From: Mycoplasmatota bacterium
Lineage (GTDB): Bacteria > Bacillota_I > Bacilli_A > RF39 > UBA660
Reading direction: 5' to 3'
NCBI GenBank assembly: GCA_022774645.1
Contig: JALFKQ010000026.1
Coordinates: 156,942-220,941, forward strand
DNA length: 64,000 nucleotides
Every line of letters begins with the position of its first letter. Position 1 is the first letter of the stretch. Both the position numbers and the translations under genes were made by a program. Of the stretch, positions 2,142 to 58,613 are shown in pieces. The notes below the pieces were generated by a model. It saw nothing but the letters and a program-made list of their open reading frames with translations. It did not search any database and had not been told where the DNA came from.

Positions 2142-3485
2142 TTATTTCTTTATAGTTCCTTGACTTAATATTTTTTTCTTACTAGCTAAATATTTTCTAT
2201 ATAATTCTTCTTTTGCTATCTGAAGATATTTTTCATCTTCACTTCTTGCATTTGAACAATCTTTTACTGTTATTGCCCCTCCATTTGATTTTATAGCTAA
2301 TGAAGACTGTTGTTTAATGGTATCAATCATACCATTTATTCTACTTACACCTTCTCTGTATGCTTCAATAGATATTCTATCTCCGCCAACCATTCCTCCA
2401 TTATTAATATCCTTGAATTTTGTATAATCGCCATCTATATTATATATATTTAATAATGATAATATATCATTAGATGTTTTAATTATTCCTGGTTTTTTGC
2501 TTACATCTGCAACAGCCATAATCATATTATGATATTCTGCGATTGATGCATCTAATAATTTATTAAATGTTTTATAATCGCCTTTTGGACCTTTATAGTA
2601 TTTACTATCATAACCACTACATTTTAAATCACTTATTGCACCAATTAGGCTAGTCAATCTTGTCATATAGCTTGAAGATGATATTCTATATGGTTTTCTT
2701 GTGGCTAGAACAGGTTTTGAATAGATACTATCTTCAATGCTTTCAACATTTAATAATAATTTAATTCCTTCATTACCACAAATTCTTCTTATACCTTCTT
2801 CTCTTCTAACAGAATAAGCATATATTTTTTTTCTTAATTCTTTTGCTTCTTCACTGTACTGGTTTAGACTATAATATTTTTCTTTAAGTTCACAAATTGC
2901 TTTATTAATTATTTCTATATTTTTTATATCATTGTCTCTATATAGATTTGGATCTGTTTGATATGTCTTAGGTGTTTGTTGTTTTATTTCTGGTTTTCTT
3001 TCTGTAGGAATTACAGTTCTTTCTTGTTTTTTAACTGTTGGTATTGGTGTATTTATGTGAGTTACTGTAGTATTTTTTTCCTGTGTTTGTTGTTTAAAAG
3101 GTGCATCCATTTCATTAACAAAGTTATACATAAATAAGTTAGCTAATCTTAAAGCTTCCATTTGTTCAGTTATTAAATCTTTATTTTGTGATGTTGCTTT
3201 TTTACTTGCAAGCTCTTTATATTCTTGTCTGATTTGATTGACTCTTGAAACTATTTTAGCCCTGATTACATTTAATTCAGCTCTTGAGTTACATTGCCTT
3301 ATTTGATTATAGTAATTAGTCATTAAACTGTAATTTTCATTTTTCTTCTTAGCAATAGATACAAGTGTTTTGTTTGATTTTGCTTTGTTTGCAAATAACA
3401 AGCATTCATTGTATTCATTTGTAACTAAAGCATAAAGTTTATTTGCTATTTGATTTCTAATTTTTATAAATTCTTTATCATTCAC
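2142..3485 (-). CDS. Hypothetical coiled-coil-like protein
   Basis: Long ORF (447 aa), charged, with a central linker; family not recognised. Confidence 0.75.
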   Translation of the reverse strand: MNDKEFIKIRNQIANKLYALVTNEYNECLLFANKAKSNKTLVSIAKKKNENYSLMTNYYNQIRQCNSRAELNVIRAKIVSRVNQIRQEYKELASKKATSQNKDLITEQMEALRLANLFMYNFVNEMDAPFKQQTQEKNTTVTHINTPIPTVKKQERTVIPTERKPEIKQQTPKTYQTDPNLYRDNDIKNIEIINKAICELKEKYYSLNQYSEEAKELRKKIYAYSVRREEGIRRICGNEGIKLLLNVESIEDSIYSKPVLATRKPYRISSSSYMTRLTSLIGAISDLKCSGYDSKYYKGPKGDYKTFNKLLDASIAEYHNMIMAVADVSKKPGIIKTSNDILSLLNIYNIDGDYTKFKDINNGGMVGGDRISIEAYREGVSRINGMIDTIKQQSSLAIKSNGGAITVKDCSNARSEDEKYLQIAKEELYRKYLASKKKILSQGTIKK

Positions 3486-3548
3486 TTATATCATCTCCAC
3501 TAATCAGTTACCATATCTTCTATAATATTTTAACATAAATATCAAATT

Positions 3549-3575
3549 AAAAAAAGTTATTTTCATAACTTTTTT
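3549..3575. terminator. Intrinsic terminator-like hairpin
   Basis: AAAAAAAGTTAT-TTTC-ATAACTTTTTT inverted repeat with A/T runs, just after the mscS-like gene stop. Confidence 0.6.
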
Positions 3576-4377
3576 ATTTATTAATATGTACATCCATTTG
3601 TGGAAAAGGTATTTCAATTTTATTCTTATCAAGTGTTTTTTTAATACTTTCCATTAAATCAAAATATAAATCCCAATAATTTTCTGTTTTTGTCCATACT
3701 CTCACTGCAAATACTAAAGCTGAATCATCATGTTTAGATAATTTTACATAATTATTCTCTTCTTGTAAAACTAATTCATTCTTTGATATTAATTCATTAA
3801 TTACTTTTTTAACTTTATCTATATCACTACTATAGGAAACAGATATATCAATATCAACTCTTCTCTTTTTATTTGCTGTATAGTTAGTTATATTTGAATT
3901 AGATAAGCTTCCATTTGGAAGTTGTATTAACTTATTATCAAATGTAGTTATTGTTGTATAGAACATTGTTATTGATTTGACTGTTCCCTCTTTTCCACTT
4001 ACTTCTATATAATCTCCAACTTTAAATGGTTTAAATATAAGTATCATAAGACCACCAGCAATATTAGATAAACCACCTTGAAGCGCTAAACCTATTGCTA
4101 CTGCACAAGAACCAAATACTGTTATTATTGATGCTGTTGGAACTCCTAAAATATGTAGAATAGCAATGAATAACACAATTTTTGATGTAATTGATATAAA
4201 ACTTATCAAAAATCCTTTTACTGATGCATCTAAGTGTTTTAATTTATTTTCTTTTCTAAGATTATTTTCTACAATTTTAATTATTTTACTTCCAATGGCT
4301 AAAATTACTACTGCTAATAACAATTTTGCAGATATATCTATACAACCATCCACTAATTTTTCTAAAAACTTCTCCAT
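3574..4377 (-). CDS. mscS: MscS-family small-conductance mechanosensitive channel
   Basis: Signature: GSCAVAIGLALQGGLSNIAGGLMILIFKPFKVGDYIEVSGKEGTVKSITMFYTTITTFDNKLIQLPNGSLSNSNITNYT. Confidence 0.93.
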   Translation of the reverse strand: MEKFLEKLVDGCIDISAKLLLAVVILAIGSKIIKIVENNLRKENKLKHLDASVKGFLISFISITSKIVLFIAILHILGVPTASIITVFGSCAVAIGLALQGGLSNIAGGLMILIFKPFKVGDYIEVSGKEGTVKSITMFYTTITTFDNKLIQLPNGSLSNSNITNYTANKKRRVDIDISVSYSSDIDKVKKVINELISKNELVLQEENNYVKLSKHDDSALVFAVRVWTKTENYWDLYFDLMESIKKTLDKNKIEIPFPQMDVHINK

Positions 4378-7354: not shown

Positions 7355-7813
7355 TTAGGATGCCACACATTTTGTGTTATAGTCACAATTATCAGAGTTT
7401 CCATTTCTATCCGCAATACAGTGTGGCTGATTTGATCTATCATATGATATTAGACAAGTATCTACATATGATAAATTAGATTTTTTGTTTACAAATACTT
7501 TTACAAAATAGTTTCCAGATATCTTTTTGTTTGTTTTAATTCCTTCGTAAGTAGAATTATAATAGTTTGCATTTTCAAGTTCACTTACTTTTAAATACAC
7601 TTCACCTTTTTCGTTAAATGAGTTCATCCATGAATCATTTAAATCTAAATACACTTCACCAGTTTTTTGAATATTAACATACAATCTTCTTGTATCTTCT
7701 TTTTCAGTACTGGATGTAGTACTATCAAATATAATTGTTGCTGATGTACTTGTTATAACTAGAATTGATATAACTACTAATAGTTCCATTAATGTAAATC
7801 CGTTTTTATTCAT
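7355..7813 (-). CDS. Type IV prepilin-like protein with N-terminal methylation motif
   Basis: MNKNGFTLMELLVVISILVITSTSATIIF: class III signal G|FTLME; Cys-containing C-terminus. Confidence 0.85.
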   Translation of the reverse strand: MNKNGFTLMELLVVISILVITSTSATIIFDSTTSSTEKEDTRRLYVNIQKTGEVYLDLNDSWMNSFNEKGEVYLKVSELENANYYNSTYEGIKTNKKISGNYFVKVFVNKKSNLSYVDTCLISYDRSNQPHCIADRNGNSDNCDYNTKCVAS

Positions 7814-21714: not shown

Positions 21715-22091
21715 TTAGCTTTTAACATAAAATTTTGTTAATGCTAGTACTGATCCAGAATTTTTATACTTTTCTAAATCTTCTTCATTTTTAACGAGTA
21801 CTTTAGTTACTACTGCTCCATCAAACATATATGATATATCTGCATTAGTTATATCAAAACTACTAATATCTAATAAATCTAATCTTGTAGCTCTAAATGT
21901 TCCATCCATGTTAGTTACTTTTGGTGTGTGAAAGCTACTTAAATCTAGTGTTTCAATTTTGCTTTCCCTAAACATGCCACCTAGAGTTATAACATTTTTA
22001 ATATATTTGGAAGTGCTATGATAACAAGTAAAGCAAGTATTGCTATTACTGCTAATAATTCCACTAATGTAAATCCTTTTCTATTTTTCAT
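21715..22091 (-). pseudogene. Decayed prepilin + DUF285 (BspA-like) gene
   Basis: From ATG 22091: MKNRKGFTLVELLAVIAILALLVIIALPNILKML*, then a different frame continues ITLGGMFRESKIETLDLSSFHTPKVTNMDGTFRATRLDLLDISSFD. The two frames join at an A5 tract (21995..21999). Confidence 0.7.
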
Positions 22092-50067: not shown

Positions 50068-50611
50068 TTATTTTACTGTAAAGGTTAGTCCACTTGGTTT
50101 ATTAGAAGTATTATTAAATTTATTGGCGTCTGCTTGTGTTCTTGCATATCCAATAGTTGCTTGTGCATTTTTAAACATATAATGCATATCTTTTGTATTG
50201 GTTGTATCAAAACTACTCAAATCTAATACCTTAGTTTTAGTTGACTCAAACATTCCACAAAAGTGAAATCCCCAACCTGTCATACCTACCACATTACTAG
50301 TATCAAGTTTATTTTAACCCTTTATTTCAGTTGCATTTGCTGAAGCAAACATCCATTGATGTCACATTATTAGTATTGAAATTACTTACATTTAATTTTT
50401 CTATTTCATATTTTTTTATACAAATTGAATTGTCACTTTCAATTGGAAATAAACCACCAGTTAATATTTTTTTCCATAAACATTTCCATCTTCGTCTTCT
50501 ACTTTTTCATATATTATTTCTCTACTTGAATCATGTCCATAAAAATCATGTACTAGTTTCCCACATTCTTTATCTAATTTCTATAGGTATTGCTTTTCCT
50601 TTGTATAACAT
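50068..50611 (-). pseudogene. Degraded DUF285/BspA-like repeat gene
   Basis: Pieces in different frames: MLYKGKAIPIE / LVHDFYGHDSSREIIYEKVEDEDGNVYGKK / ILTGGLFPIESDNSICIKKYEIEKLNVSNFNTNNVTSMD / FASANATEIKG*NKLDTSNVVGMTGWGFHFCGMFESTKTKVLDLSSFDTTNTKDMHYMFKNAQATIGYARTQADANKFN. Confidence 0.75.
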
Positions 50612-53691: not shown

Positions 53692-54702
53692 CTATCTATT
53701 TTTTAATTTTTCTATTACATTATGTAAATTATCAGCTTTTATTATTTCAATATCATAATTTTTTTCTTTTTTAATTTTTATTGCTTCATCATAGTTACCG
53801 CTTGGTACAATAAATACTTTTGCTTTATTTTTAATTGCTCCTTTTAGTTTATATTTAACTCCATCGATTTCACCAACTGTACCATCCGCTTCAATACTTC
53901 CAGTACCAGCTATAATTTCACCTTTTGTTAAATCATAATCTGTTATTCTGTTATATATTTCAAGGGCACACATAAGTCCTCTTGATGAACCACTTTCATT
54001 ATTTTTAAATACGAATTTTACATTTTCTTTTGTACTAATATTTTTTAGTACTGCTAAATATATTCCTATTGATAAATTATCATTTTCATCTTTTTTAAGT
54101 ATTGCATAACAATCTTTTTCTTTATTATTTCTTTCAACTTTTATATTTAATCTATCATTTTCTTTATATTTTTCTTTTTCGTTTTTTAATGTTTCATAAT
54201 CAGTAATTTTAGCACCATTTATTTCTTTTATTGTATCTCCTACTTTTAGATTATTGTTTGTTTTATCTGTTATATATGTTACTTTTAAATCAACACTATT
54301 AACTTTATATGGTTTACCTGCTTCTTCATAAGCAGCTATTATTGAATTATAACTTGTTTCTTCCAAATAAATTCTATTTCTAAGATTTACTTCTTCCATA
54401 CTTTCATTATCTATTTTAACATCACTTGCTGGTACTAAATCCCAAGATGGAATTATATAAGATAAAAGTACTGCTGGTATTATTCCATTTCTAGATGTTA
54501 CATAAGTTAAATTGAAGCTGCCTTCTTCTATATATTTATTATCAGTTTCAATTCTATCTTCTAAACTAATAAGTCCTCCTGGCGAATATATATTATAATC
54601 AAGTTTTATAAAGAAAGTTGGTACAATTAAAATAAATAATATATATGAAATATAATTATTCTTAATATCATTTTTTATGTAATTTAGTATCTTTTTTATC
54701 AT
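53692..54702 (-). CDS. ylbL: YlbL/SepM-like PDZ + Lon-type protease domain protein
   Basis: TM; PDZ-like KVGDTIKEINGAKITDYETLK; NESGSSRGLMCALEIYN (catalytic Ser) and GVKYKLKGAIKNKAKVFIVP. Confidence 0.88.
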   Translation of the reverse strand: MIKKILNYIKNDIKNNYISYILFILIVPTFFIKLDYNIYSPGGLISLEDRIETDNKYIEEGSFNLTYVTSRNGIIPAVLLSYIIPSWDLVPASDVKIDNESMEEVNLRNRIYLEETSYNSIIAAYEEAGKPYKVNSVDLKVTYITDKTNNNLKVGDTIKEINGAKITDYETLKNEKEKYKENDRLNIKVERNNKEKDCYAILKKDENDNLSIGIYLAVLKNISTKENVKFVFKNNESGSSRGLMCALEIYNRITDYDLTKGEIIAGTGSIEADGTVGEIDGVKYKLKGAIKNKAKVFIVPSGNYDEAIKIKKEKNYDIEIIKADNLHNVIEKLKNR

Positions 54703-54747: not shown

Positions 54748-55656
54748 ATGAAAAAAATAAAATATATTTTGCTTACTTTAATATTTATAATATTTATTAT
54801 TAATATTGATGTTGTTATTGAATCTGCTCATAATGCATCTTTTGTGTTTTTTAATAAAATTTTTGTTAGTGTTTTTCCATTTATTATACTCAGTGATATA
54901 TTATATTATTTTAATTATCATATATTCTTAAAAGATAATATTGGGTCTTTTATATCTAAATTATTTAGAATTAATAGTGAAAGTAGTACTGTATTTTTAT
55001 TTAGTTTATTTACTAGTCATCCAGCTAATGCAATATATATTAAAAATATGCTTGATAATAATGAAATAAGTGTTAATAATGCTAGTAATTTATTGTGTTA
55101 TACTTATTTTCCATCTATATCTTTTGTTATTGGTAGTATTGGTATAGGTCTTTATAATAATTATAAATTTGGTTTATTTTTATATTTAATTTGTTTAGTT
55201 AATAATATAATAATTGGTTTATTTTTAAGAAATAAAAATGATACTAATATAAGTTATAATATAAGAAGTAATAACGATAATTTACTTGATACTTTTTACA
55301 ATTCTATTATGAAAGGTATTAATACTTCTTTTATAATACTTGGTAATCTTATTGTGTTTACTATTATAATCAATTTGATAATTAAGTATTTTAATATTAA
55401 TCCATATATACTTAGTATTTTTAGTGGTATTTTAGAGCTTACTAGTGGTGTTATTAATGTAAGTAATATAAATAATAGTTTAAATATAAAGTTTTGTTTA
55501 ACAGCTTTTATTTTATGTTTTAGTGGTTTGTCTATTTTATTTCAAAGTTTTACTATTCTTAGTAAATATAAAATCAATATAAAAAAAATATTAATTGTTA
55601 AATTAATATTTTCTATTATGAGTGCCTTTATTATATTTATAGTTACTTTGCTGTGA
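54748..55656 (+). CDS. ylbJ: Sporulation integral membrane protein YlbJ-like
   Basis: Multi-TM; VFPFIILSDIL, TSHPANAIYIKNML, CYTYFPSISFVIGSIG; adjacent to ylbL as in B. subtilis. Confidence 0.8.
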   Translation: MKKIKYILLTLIFIIFIINIDVVIESAHNASFVFFNKIFVSVFPFIILSDILYYFNYHIFLKDNIGSFISKLFRINSESSTVFLFSLFTSHPANAIYIKNMLDNNEISVNNASNLLCYTYFPSISFVIGSIGIGLYNNYKFGLFLYLICLVNNIIIGLFLRNKNDTNISYNIRSNNDNLLDTFYNSIMKGINTSFIILGNLIVFTIIINLIIKYFNINPYILSIFSGILELTSGVINVSNINNSLNIKFCLTAFILCFSGLSILFQSFTILSKYKINIKKILIVKLIFSIMSAFIIFIVTLL

Positions 55657-56875
55657 ATTTTAAGTTTTCTGGTTTATGAGGTGTACTTAATGCATTAAAT
55701 TTATTTGCTTCAGCACTATTTCTAGCATAGCCTGTCGTAGCTCTTGTATTTCTAAACATATTATTCATATTAGTGACTTTACTTGTGTCAAAACTACTCA
55801 AATCAAGTGTAGAAATTTTAGTATTATAGAACATTAGCTCCATATTTGTAACATTTCTAGTGTCTAATTTGTTAAGACCATTTATTGTTGTAGCTTCTGC
55901 TCCGTCAAACATACTCTCCATATTTACAACATTACTAGAGTTTAAACTGCTAACATCTATAGAAGTTGCCTTTGAATTAATAAACATATGTGAAGTTGAA
56001 ACAATTGGTTTTCCATCTATAGTTGCACAAATTTCATCTGTTATTGGAGTAGTTGATGATAAATCTACAATTCTCACTCCCCAACCATCAGTTGAAATAT
56101 TATTCCAACTATATTGGTTACTTTGTATTCTTGTCCAGAAACTTTCTTGTTTATATCTATATTCATATGAACCTCTTATATATTTTGAACCTTGTGTTAG
56201 TGTAGTATTTCCACTAGTACAAGCAAGCCCAGTCACTGGAGGATTAGGAGTTTGTGTTCCATCAGTTTTCTTTACTGTATCTGTTGAATATAATTTAATA
56301 TTATAAGTTTCATCACTTACATGTATTGTTAAAATACTTAATATATCTTGTTTTGTTGTATCTTTTTTATTATCATAAGAATGTTGTTCAAGAGATAAAC
56401 CTGTGAATTTATAACCTCTTGTTGTGACTCTATTTTGATCTTTATTTTGTATATTTTCTTGTTCTATCGTTCTTAAAAATGATTGCTTATTTGTCTTCTT
56501 ATCATAATAAGATACTGTACTAGTATCCGTTCTTTCATATCTTATTATATTACCATTACTATCTTTTATTGCTTTAGTTCCATTTAACGAAAGAGTGTAT
56601 ATTTTTAATTGCCTTTCTTCACCATTTCTTAATTTTATATCACATATATTTCCTTCTTCATTACAGCTTGCTTTAGTAATACCTTTATTATTAATAATAT
56701 CATTATTTATATGTCTTGATATTGATGCACTAAATATTCTAATATCACTATCCTCATCTATAACTTCATATGTTTGTTTTAATTTAACAAGTGTTGCTAG
56801 AAGTGAAACAAGTATAACTGATACTAAAGTTATACTTACAATTAATTCAATTAGTGTAAAACCTTTTTTGTTCAT
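55643..56875 (-). CDS. Prepilin-type protein with C-terminal DUF285 (BspA-like) repeats
   Basis: MNKKGFTLIELIVSITLVSVILVSLLATLVKL; repeats NVVNMESMFDGAEATTINGLNKLDTRNVTNMELMFYNTKISTLDLSSFDTSKVTNMNNMFRNTRATTGYA. RBS GGAGG. Confidence 0.88.
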   Translation of the reverse strand: MNKKGFTLIELIVSITLVSVILVSLLATLVKLKQTYEVIDEDSDIRIFSASISRHINNDIINNKGITKASCNEEGNICDIKLRNGEERQLKIYTLSLNGTKAIKDSNGNIIRYERTDTSTVSYYDKKTNKQSFLRTIEQENIQNKDQNRVTTRGYKFTGLSLEQHSYDNKKDTTKQDILSILTIHVSDETYNIKLYSTDTVKKTDGTQTPNPPVTGLACTSGNTTLTQGSKYIRGSYEYRYKQESFWTRIQSNQYSWNNISTDGWGVRIVDLSSTTPITDEICATIDGKPIVSTSHMFINSKATSIDVSSLNSSNVVNMESMFDGAEATTINGLNKLDTRNVTNMELMFYNTKISTLDLSSFDTSKVTNMNNMFRNTRATTGYARNSAEANKFNALSTPHKPENLKFTAK

Positions 56876-56886
56876 GTTATCCTCCA

Positions 56887-57387
56887 TTATAACATTATTG
56901 AAGCATAATAATATTTTCCTTTTCTATAAAATACCCCTATTGCATAGTTAATTGGTGTTGTATCATCATCTTGATATTTTTTTAATGTTTTTAAATATTC
57001 TATTGTCCCATTATCATATACTTTAGTAGCATAGTAATTCTCACTTTGGTTATTAGTAAGTGCTTTTTCTATATCATTTATTATTATAAAATATATCATA
57101 TTAGTATCACTAAATAACTGTTTACAATCAGAAATAACATCATTCATGTAAGTTGTATCACAGTTATCTTTAGAGGCAACTAAATTACTTTGATAACTCA
57201 CTCCTGTTTTATTTCCCATTTCGTTTACAGTCCATAATAAATATTTATCACTTGGAGTATCATAGTATTTTCTTTGTTTTGATTTACTTGCTAAAAGATC
57301 ATAACTAGATAATGACATTGTTAGTGCTAGTGCAACTATTATCAAGACGGTTACACTTTCTACAAATACGAATCCTTTTTTATTCAT
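56887..57387 (-). CDS. Prepilin-type minor pilin-like protein
   Basis: MNKKGFVFVESVTVLIIVALALTMSLSSYD (G|FVFVE). Confidence 0.75.
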   Translation of the reverse strand: MNKKGFVFVESVTVLIIVALALTMSLSSYDLLASKSKQRKYYDTPSDKYLLWTVNEMGNKTGVSYQSNLVASKDNCDTTYMNDVISDCKQLFSDTNMIYFIIINDIEKALTNNQSENYYATKVYDNGTIEYLKTLKKYQDDDTTPINYAIGVFYRKGKYYYASIML

Positions 57388-57389
57388 AA

Positions 57390-58613
57390 TCAGTCTCCTA
57401 TTATATATGGACTAGTTCTAAGTCCTGTTCCACTTTTAATGATAGAATCTCCTCTTAAAGTTATAACTGGAAATATTTTTCCTTTTTGTGAAGTATTTGT
57501 TTCTTCAAGTGTTCCATCTGCATTATGCATAAATATATTTGAATAATTACTTACATGAGAACTTGGTGTCATTGTAAAATATTGATTTCCGTTTGCTAAA
57601 TAATGTGTTTCTGATGTAGTTGTACCATTTTTAGCAATAGCACCTGCATACATTAATTCATCCATTGTAATCATTCCAACTGGATATAATAGTTCACCAT
57701 TACCTGATGCTAATGACTGGCTAAATTTATCTTTATCATTTGTACAGTTAAATGTTGGCAAATTTGATTGATATCTTAAATATGGATTATAATATGTAAT
57801 ATTATTACCATAACCAAATTGTGTTCCGGTACCAGTATATCCTTCACTTGCAGTTGTAATTTTTCTATCTGAACAATAAGTTACATCTGCTAAATATTTT
57901 GTAATTTCATCACCTTTTGAGTAAATATTATCTTTAGCCCAATTATCTATTTCTTTTTTAGCATTACTATCAAATTTATTATTTGTGGATTCTTCATATG
58001 TTGTTGTAGGTGTTGTTATAACACAAGTAGTGGTTGATTCACACTCATTTTCAACTCCTGTTTTGTACCCTATAAATGTATTGTCTTTTGTTGTTTGATT
58101 ATATACAACATCAGTTATTGGAGAAGTAATTGTTCCATCGGGACAAGCTCCATTTGTTGGTACACCTGCATATTGCATCTTGACAGCATTTCCCTCAGCT
58201 GTTCTTATTATTCTAAAACATAGTCCAGCATAAATAACATAGTTATTATTTACAGCACCTCTAAAATAATAAACTCTTTTGCCATTAATTGATTTATCTG
58301 CACTAGTAGTATAATACAGTCCTTTACCATTTGTATCACTTGAAGGTAAACTGAAATTTATTCCTGTACTACTACTCACATTAATACTATCTACACTATC
58401 TGAATAATTCAAATTATCTATTAGAATTCTATAATATAATTTACTTTTTTGTTCATTAGATACTTTTAAATCACTATTTATTCTTTCACTAAAAGTAGTT
58501 AATATTTTATTATTTCTAGAATATGTTTTTAATATTGCAAGCATAACAAAAAGAAATAATATTAAAAATGTATATACAAGTGTCATTGAAATGAAACCAT
58601 TTTTATTTTTCAT
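57390..58613 (-). CDS. Large pseudopilin-like secreted protein lacking Glu5
   Basis: MKNKNGFISMTLVYTFLILFLFVMLAIL N-terminus; large extracellular domain ending SGTGLRTSPYIIGD. Confidence 0.7.
   Translation of the reverse strand: MKNKNGFISMTLVYTFLILFLFVMLAILKTYSRNNKILTTFSERINSDLKVSNEQKSKLYYRILIDNLNYSDSVDSINVSSSTGINFSLPSSDTNGKGLYYTTSADKSINGKRVYYFRGAVNNNYVIYAGLCFRIIRTAEGNAVKMQYAGVPTNGACPDGTITSPITDVVYNQTTKDNTFIGYKTGVENECESTTTCVITTPTTTYEESTNNKFDSNAKKEIDNWAKDNIYSKGDEITKYLADVTYCSDRKITTASEGYTGTGTQFGYGNNITYYNPYLRYQSNLPTFNCTNDKDKFSQSLASGNGELLYPVGMITMDELMYAGAIAKNGTTTSETHYLANGNQYFTMTPSSHVSNYSNIFMHNADGTLEETNTSQKGKIFPVITLRGDSIIKSGTGLRTSPYIIGD

What the first reader, a model, noticed from the sequence alone, without database searches (positions are those of the whole stretch)
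55643..58613. Three-gene pseudopilin operon with a DUF285-repeat member and a GspK-like member lacking Glu5
Seen: three consecutive minus-strand ORFs with gaps of a few nt or less, each starting with a prepilin-type N-terminus: GFISMT (no Glu5), GFVFVE and GFTLIE. The last carries BspA-like DUF285 repeats, usually found on LPxTG or lipoprotein adhesins. Established: in type II secretion/type IV pili the tip-initiating GspK lacks Glu5 and has a large globular domain. Inference: this is a minor-pilin tip complex displaying a repeat adhesin. No assembly ATPase, platform protein or prepilin peptidase is in the window, so partners would have to be elsewhere.
Basis: partly seen in the sequence, partly recalled or inferred. 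Interest (0 to 1): 0.72.

Follow-up and report, generated by a model that had tools for sequence, protein, structure and literature searches.

The report
Swappable-adhesin minor-pilin tip cassette
Three neighbouring genes of a small-genome gut bacterium very probably encode the tip subunits of a type IV pilus, and across about a hundred relatives one or another of these subunits keeps gaining, losing or changing a large surface domain, so the tip looks like a conserved mount for interchangeable binding heads.

Summary
Window 55643-58613 (-) holds three tightly packed genes with prepilin-type N-termini: A (407 aa, GFISMT, no Glu5), B (166 aa, GFVFVE) and C (410 aa, GFTLIE plus DUF285). The missing partners exist: the genome has one PilB, one PilC and one PilD, the last two 4-6 kb outside the window. 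In 59 of 99 relatives' loci B starts next to a divergent pilB, and in twelve pilC and pilD lie there too; this ties the cassette to the pilus machine. B is found in 106 of 117 genomes of the family and essentially nowhere else in the class. Position 5 is Glu in 105/107 B and 101/101 C, never in 20 A proteins. The large domains are not fixed parts: the same-genus C ends where DUF285 begins here, some A proteins are only 69-70 aa, and grafts (DUF285, a DUF6273-like domain, Gly-rich ALK/LTK, laminin-G, BspA LRR) ride on A, B or C in different genomes, changing at least 30 times on the tree. Best reading: a pilus-initiating tip complex with swappable binding heads, like S. sanguinis PilABC. "GspK-like" holds only for the missing Glu5. 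Tip location and ligand are inferred. A new variant of a known kind.

The parts
57390..58613 (-). A: prepilin-like protein without Glu5 (GFISMT), 407 aa; N-terminal helix plus a DUF6273-like C-terminal domain (residues about 79-405)
56887..57387 (-). B: short minor pilin with Glu5 (GFVFVE), 166 aa, no graft; the most conserved member of the cassette
55643..56875 (-). C: modular minor pilin with Glu5 (GFTLIE), 410 aa; pilin module then DUF285 graft
56250..56875 (-). C pilin module (end approximate); ends where the 206-aa same-genus orthologue (G058) ends
   Evidence: helix 11-66 then strands; pLDDT about 53-92 over residues 1-100
55643..56249 (-). C graft (start approximate): Pro/Thr linker, about 80-residue cap and DUF285/PARCEL repeats, 41-46% identical to modules on stand-alone pilins of the same genome
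54748..55656 (+). YlbJ-like membrane protein (name from memory; no Pfam hit), convergent neighbour conserved next to C in relatives (73 of 99 loci); context, not part of the cassette
53692..54702 (-). PDZ-Lon (YlbL-like) protein, conserved neighbour; context only
21715..22091 (-). remnant of another pilin-DUF285 gene: N_methyl start, then out-of-frame DUF285 repeats
50068..50330 (-). decayed DUF285 fragment ending in the same C-terminal cap as C

Best explanation
A, B and C are minor pilins of the single type IV filament machine of this uncultured, small-genome Bacilli lineage. They are cleaved after Gly by the one prepilin peptidase, sit side by side in the membrane, and start assembly of the filament by PilB and PilC; A, lacking Glu5, goes first and ends up at the top. 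Their pilin parts form the conserved mount at the tip. The large C-terminal domains (in the window the DUF6273-like domain of A and the DUF285 repeats of C) are exposed binding heads, taken from a pool of surface modules also carried by other pilins and surface proteins, and exchanged by recombination over evolution. Shown by sequence: the three genes, the machine, genetic linkage in relatives, conservation of the pilin parts, lability of the grafts. Inferred: processing, tip location, order of assembly, adhesion, ligand.
For: One PilB, one PilC and one PilD in the genome. B in 106/117 family genomes and 179/193 genomes of the order sample, usually one copy; outside it only one marginal hit in the class sample. 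PilC, searched with the window genome's own, in 104/117. In 59 of 99 loci holding both B and C, B starts mostly 30-190 bp (one 591 bp) from a divergent pilB; pilC and pilD are in the same stretch in 12. Position 5 conserved by subunit: E in B and C, S/T/A/V in A, with Gly-1 in 20/20 A. The C profile matches solved pilins at its N-terminus (geopilin 7.9e-6, S. sanguinis PilE1 0.0017) and its model has a long helix followed by strands. Grafts differ between genomes and ride on A, B or C. The carrier state changes at least 30 times on a B+C tree of 98 loci (36-41 for shuffled labels); B grafts are as scattered as chance (12 against 12.4). The C graft resembles modules on five other pilin-type proteins of this genome. 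Relatives of the A domain also sit at the C-terminus of a presumed phage tail protein, where receptor binding is the usual job (role inferred from its position).
Against: 57 of 98 surveyed cassettes have no large graft within the locus, so display cannot be the only role; the bare complex must do something (assembly start, perhaps DNA capture). A is not detected by its N-terminal profile in 39 of 117 genomes, so it may be dispensable or too divergent to see. A has no pilin profile hit and no confident fold (mean pLDDT 40). The full C model is also poor (mean pLDDT 44), and neither model gave a significant structural match. In the window's genome the cassette is not next to pilB. No expression, processing or localisation data exist.
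Confidence: 0.74

Rival explanations
1. The cassette is the minor-pilin set of a DNA-uptake (Com-type) pilus; the large domains are side features.
For: Machine limited to PilB, PilC, PilD and pilins, no PilT found; ComEC present, in two copies; the C N-terminus scores best against ComGE and ComGF among named pilin families; most relatives have a graft-free cassette. In monoderms the Com tip binds DNA by ComGD-ComGF (PMC12153270).
Against: Scores to ComGE/ComGF are far below the curated cut-offs (25 against 49, 22 against 80 bits); no comG-type operon; grafts are of surface-binding kinds and change often. Not exclusive of the best explanation: one filament may do both.
Confidence: 0.3
2. A, B and C form a short pseudopilus that secretes proteins, as in type II secretion, rather than a displayed pilus.
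For: PilB and PilC score best against GspE and GspF models; tip complexes of type II secretion have the same make-up.
Against: GspE/GspF scores are below their cut-offs (476 against 630; 273 against 424 bits); the cell is presumably a monoderm (class Bacilli) that needs no secretin; grafted binding domains suit display, not secretion.
Confidence: 0.08
3. A is not a pilin but a separate single-pass surface protein that happens to share the operon; only B and C are minor pilins.
For: No Pfam, NCBIfam or PDB-sequence hit for the A N-terminus; A is missing next to B-C in most loci and sometimes encoded elsewhere; its C-terminal domain is common on non-pilin surface proteins.
Against: Invariant Gly before an almost invariant Phe, short basic leader, conserved helix, and A sits before B, between B and C, or after C in the same orientation; helix-only A proteins of 69-70 aa make sense as a capping pilin.
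Confidence: 0.18

Closest known systems
PilA-PilB-PilC tip complex of Streptococcus sanguinis type 4 pili (PMC9934059, PMC8179133)
   Same: Three minor pilins in an operon, one without Glu5, others modular with binding domains, monoderm host.
   Different: There the subunit without Glu5 is small and I-like, and the grafts (vWA, lectin) sit on the other two; here any of the three may carry the graft, including the one without Glu5. No sequence relation shown; S. sanguinis PilA is reported to have no sequence homologues outside its species (PMC9934059).
HIJK minor pilins (GspHIJK, PilHIJK; tip of type II secretion pseudopili and T4aP)
   Same: A subunit without Glu5, encoded with minor pilins that have it; widely conserved, thought to start assembly.
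   Different: Three subunits instead of four; A lacks any GspK profile and can be helix only; grafts vary between close relatives.
Com pilus minor pilins ComGD-ComGG (T4dP)
   Same: Monoderm, minimal machine, weak N-terminal similarity of C to ComGE/ComGF, ComEC in the genome.
   Different: No comGA-GG operon; scores below family cut-offs; I know of no Com minor pilins with such grafts.
Modular pilins (PMC8179133: over 1,200 proteins, 264 architectures)
   Same: Pilin module plus a foreign C-terminal domain; that survey's most frequent grafts include IPR026906, IPR011871 and the PF13385 lectin-like domain, whose counterparts LRR_5, Fib_succ_major and Laminin_G_3 are seen here (matching of the two InterPro numbers to Pfam is from memory).
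   Different: That survey catalogues single proteins; here grafts move among the three subunits of one conserved cassette, which can be followed at a fixed locus.
DUF285 / PARCEL repeats (PMC2996958)
   Same: Repeats of about 25 residues on surface proteins of monoderms, patchy and thought to spread horizontally.
   Different: On a minor pilin here; the word pilin does not occur in the PARCEL paper.

Membership tests
Type 4 filament pilins | Short basic leader, Gly-1, Phe or similar at +1, hydrophobic helix | tested here: met
   A, B and C; Gly-1 in 20/20 A, 104/107 B, 99/101 C
Type 4 filament pilins | Glu at +5 (B and C) | tested here: met
   B 105/107, C 101/101
Type 4 filament pilins | Glu at +5 (A) | tested here: not met
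   A 0/20; known exception for initiating subunits such as GspK and S. sanguinis PilA (PMC9934059)
Type 4 filament pilins | N-terminal helix plus beta sheet | tested here: inconclusive
   C: helix 11-66 and strands to about 136, pLDDT about 53-92 over residues 1-100; A: helix 4-48 then no confident fold; B not folded
Type 4 filament pilins | Linked to assembly ATPase, platform and prepilin peptidase | tested here: met
GspK / ComGG | Lacks Glu5 | tested here: met
   A, 20 of 20
GspK / ComGG | Matches the family profile | tested here: not met
   No hit in Pfam (E up to 1) or NCBIfam (E up to 0.1); no pilin among PDB sequences for the A N-terminal profile
HIJK / PilABC tip complex | Small set of minor pilins encoded together, one without Glu5 | tested here: met
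   Window, and 16 of 99 relatives' loci with A, B and C in the stretch
HIJK / PilABC tip complex | Form a complex at the filament tip; needed for assembly | not testable with these tools
   Needs structure, microscopy or mutants
Modular pilin | Pilin motif plus a domain not specific to pilus biology | tested here: met
   C: N_methyl + DUF285
Com pilus (T4dP) | comGA-comGG operon and ComG family profiles above cut-off | tested here: not met
   pilB, pilC/pilD and the cassette are at three places; ComGE 25 of 49 bits, ComGF 22 of 80
DUF285 / PARCEL | Profile above curated cut-off | tested here: met
   PF03382 65 bits against 25; TIGR02167 48 against 30
DUF6273 | Profile match of the A C-terminal domain | tested here: inconclusive
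   None for window A; below cut-off in A of two relatives (L084, L085); above it in one B and two stand-alone pilins

The most novel reading that the evidence does not exclude
The cassette is a lineage-wide device for diversifying the pilus tip: three conserved minor pilins serve as a mount on which binding domains are repeatedly replaced, and moved from one subunit to another, from a genome-wide reservoir of modules on stand-alone pilins and surface proteins. The reservoir includes decaying copies (two in the window), as in other systems of surface variation.
Probability: 0.45. Interest if true: 0.72.

Novelty: new variant of a known kind. Interest (0 to 1): 0.6.

Why it matters
Modular pilins are known mostly as single proteins from scattered species. 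Here one locus can be followed through about a hundred related genomes, so one can ask directly how pilus tips change their binding partners, which subunit tolerates a graft, and whether the subunit without Glu5 is the one at the top. It also gives an uncultured gut lineage with small genomes a concrete attachment machine to test.

Tried and rejected
Viral contigs with A or C as single queries: nothing; with a profile of the A domain: four loci. AlphaFold for C and A: low confidence apart from the C pilin part; PDB fold searches with both gave nothing significant and are not used. PDB sequence search for B, the A domain and the A N-terminus: no convincing hit. PHROGs for the two presumed tail proteins scanned: no hit. 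Promoter scan: no more sites than in shuffles, so no claim on transcription. Papers joining DUF285 with prepilin, or RF39 with pilin: none held. Considered and dropped: A as a true GspK; DUF285 as the defining feature of the operon.

Full report
Observation. In transcription order they are A (58613-57390, 407 aa), B (57387-56887, 166 aa) and C (56875-55643, 410 aa). Gaps are 2 and 11 nt. Mature N-termini are FISMTLVYTF, FVFVESVTVL and FTLIELIVSI, each after a short basic leader and Gly. Pfam sees N_methyl and DUF285 in C only.

Is there a machine? Yes. The genome (1.40 Mb, 36 contigs, 93.9% complete, 5.2% contaminated) has one PilB-like ATPase (C29:36916-38058), one PilC-like platform protein (C5:151373-153202) and one prepilin peptidase (C5:150718-151044); the last two lie about 4 to 6 kb left of the window on its own contig. 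A second ATPase belongs to a Tad-like cluster (C19). No PilT was found. N_methyl has 23 hits above cut-off in this genome: besides C there are some twenty stand-alone pilin-type proteins or fragments, many of 350-950 aa.

Conservation. A profile of B finds 106 of 117 genomes of the family (86 of 91 good ones), usually one copy, 179 of 193 in an order sample whose members all belong to this one family, and outside it only one marginal hit in a class sample of 296. The A N-terminus is found in 78 of 117, mostly once. In the loci examined the order is [A]-B-[A]-C, convergent with a YlbJ-like gene and followed by a PDZ-Lon gene. In 59 of 99 loci with both B and C, B is preceded, mostly by 30-190 bp, by a divergent pilB, and in 12 pilC and pilD are there as well. 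This is the strongest evidence that the cassette belongs to the filament machine, although in the window's genome the parts are scattered.

Position 5. It is Glu in 105 of 107 B and 101 of 101 C, and Ser, Thr, Ala or Val in 20 of 20 A, with Gly-1 in all 20 A. The lack of Glu5 is a conserved property of A, not a mutation. In S. sanguinis PilABC and in HIJK, too, one subunit lacks Glu5 and is placed first or at the top (PMC9934059).

The grafts. The C pilin module ends where the 206-aa same-genus orthologue stops; after it come a Pro/Thr linker and the DUF285 module. That module is 41-46% identical over 166-180 residues to modules on three stand-alone pilins of the genome, and five stand-alone pilins carry DUF285. 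By repeat pattern no other A, B or C in the survey has it. The A domain, about 325 residues, recurs on A, B and C of relatives, on a stand-alone pilin, on many non-pilin surface proteins and at the end of a presumed phage tail protein. Other grafts are Gly-rich ALK/LTK (A, B, C), Laminin_G_3 (B; A below cut-off), LRR_5 (B), Fib_succ_major (C) and DUF7507 (B). A ranges from 62 to 730 aa. Counting a graft as A over 150, B or C over 300 aa, 41 of 98 loci have at least one within the stretch examined; the state changes at least 30 times on a B+C tree (shuffled labels 36-41), and for B alone 12 times (shuffled mean 12.4). Grafts are thus gained, lost or moved far faster than the carriers change. 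The length cut-offs are mine, and the counts cannot tell gain from loss.

Mechanism. Established knowledge: minor pilins without Glu5 start and cap type 4 filaments, and grafted domains on tip pilins bind ligands (PMC9934059, PMC8179133, PMC10191384). Inference: A, B and C start the filament and display the A domain and the DUF285 module at the tip. The main pilin was not identified. DNA uptake is an open second role, since ComEC is present and Com tips bind DNA (PMC12153270).

Limits. Both structure models are poor except for the first 100 residues of C, and their fold searches carry no weight. The genome is a draft assembly with some contamination; two ComEC proteins 46% alike may reflect that. 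The tool does not name the organism; from the record titles of relatives it is an uncultured Bacilli lineage of animal guts, and one family with over 100 small-genome genera suggests GTDB order RF39 (my inference).

Verdict. A real minor-pilin cassette of a type IV filament, known in kind, with an unusual and testable feature: one conserved mount with grafts that change from genome to genome and from subunit to subunit.

Noticed in passing
window 21715-22091 (-): Remnant of a pilin-DUF285 gene: an N_methyl start (MKNRKGFTLVELLAVIAILALLVIIALPN) followed out of frame by DUF285 repeats.
   Followed up: partly
window 50068-50330 (-): Decayed DUF285 fragment whose last residues match the C-terminal cap of C (GYAR..A.ANKFN..KP..L.F..K).
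   Followed up: partly
window 7355-7813 (-): Another stand-alone short pilin-type protein (152 aa, GFTLMELLVV).
   Followed up: no
genome G000 as a whole: 23 pilin-motif hits in 1.4 Mb with a single PilB/PilC/PilD set; five stand-alone pilin-type proteins carry DUF285 and two carry DUF6273.
   Followed up: partly
L039 (G000:C19, about 78-87 kb): Tad/archaellum-like cluster: TadA-like ATPase, two membrane proteins and small proteins starting MKES/MRES/MKEA.
   Followed up: no
L029:6371-8203: The PilC protein of this genome has an extra, Lys-rich N-terminal part of about 200 residues before the GspF-like domain.
   Followed up: no
L212-L214, about 2400-3880 (viral contigs): The A-type domain sits at the C-terminus of a presumed phage tail protein, just upstream (in L213, L214) of a small membrane protein.
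   Followed up: partly
L092:929-2321 and 2345-2710: Four tandem small pilin-type genes (121-170 aa) with nearly identical N-termini.
   Followed up: no
L215, L216 (G000:C9 and C27): Two comEC loci whose proteins are 46% identical; duplicate or contamination.
   Followed up: partly
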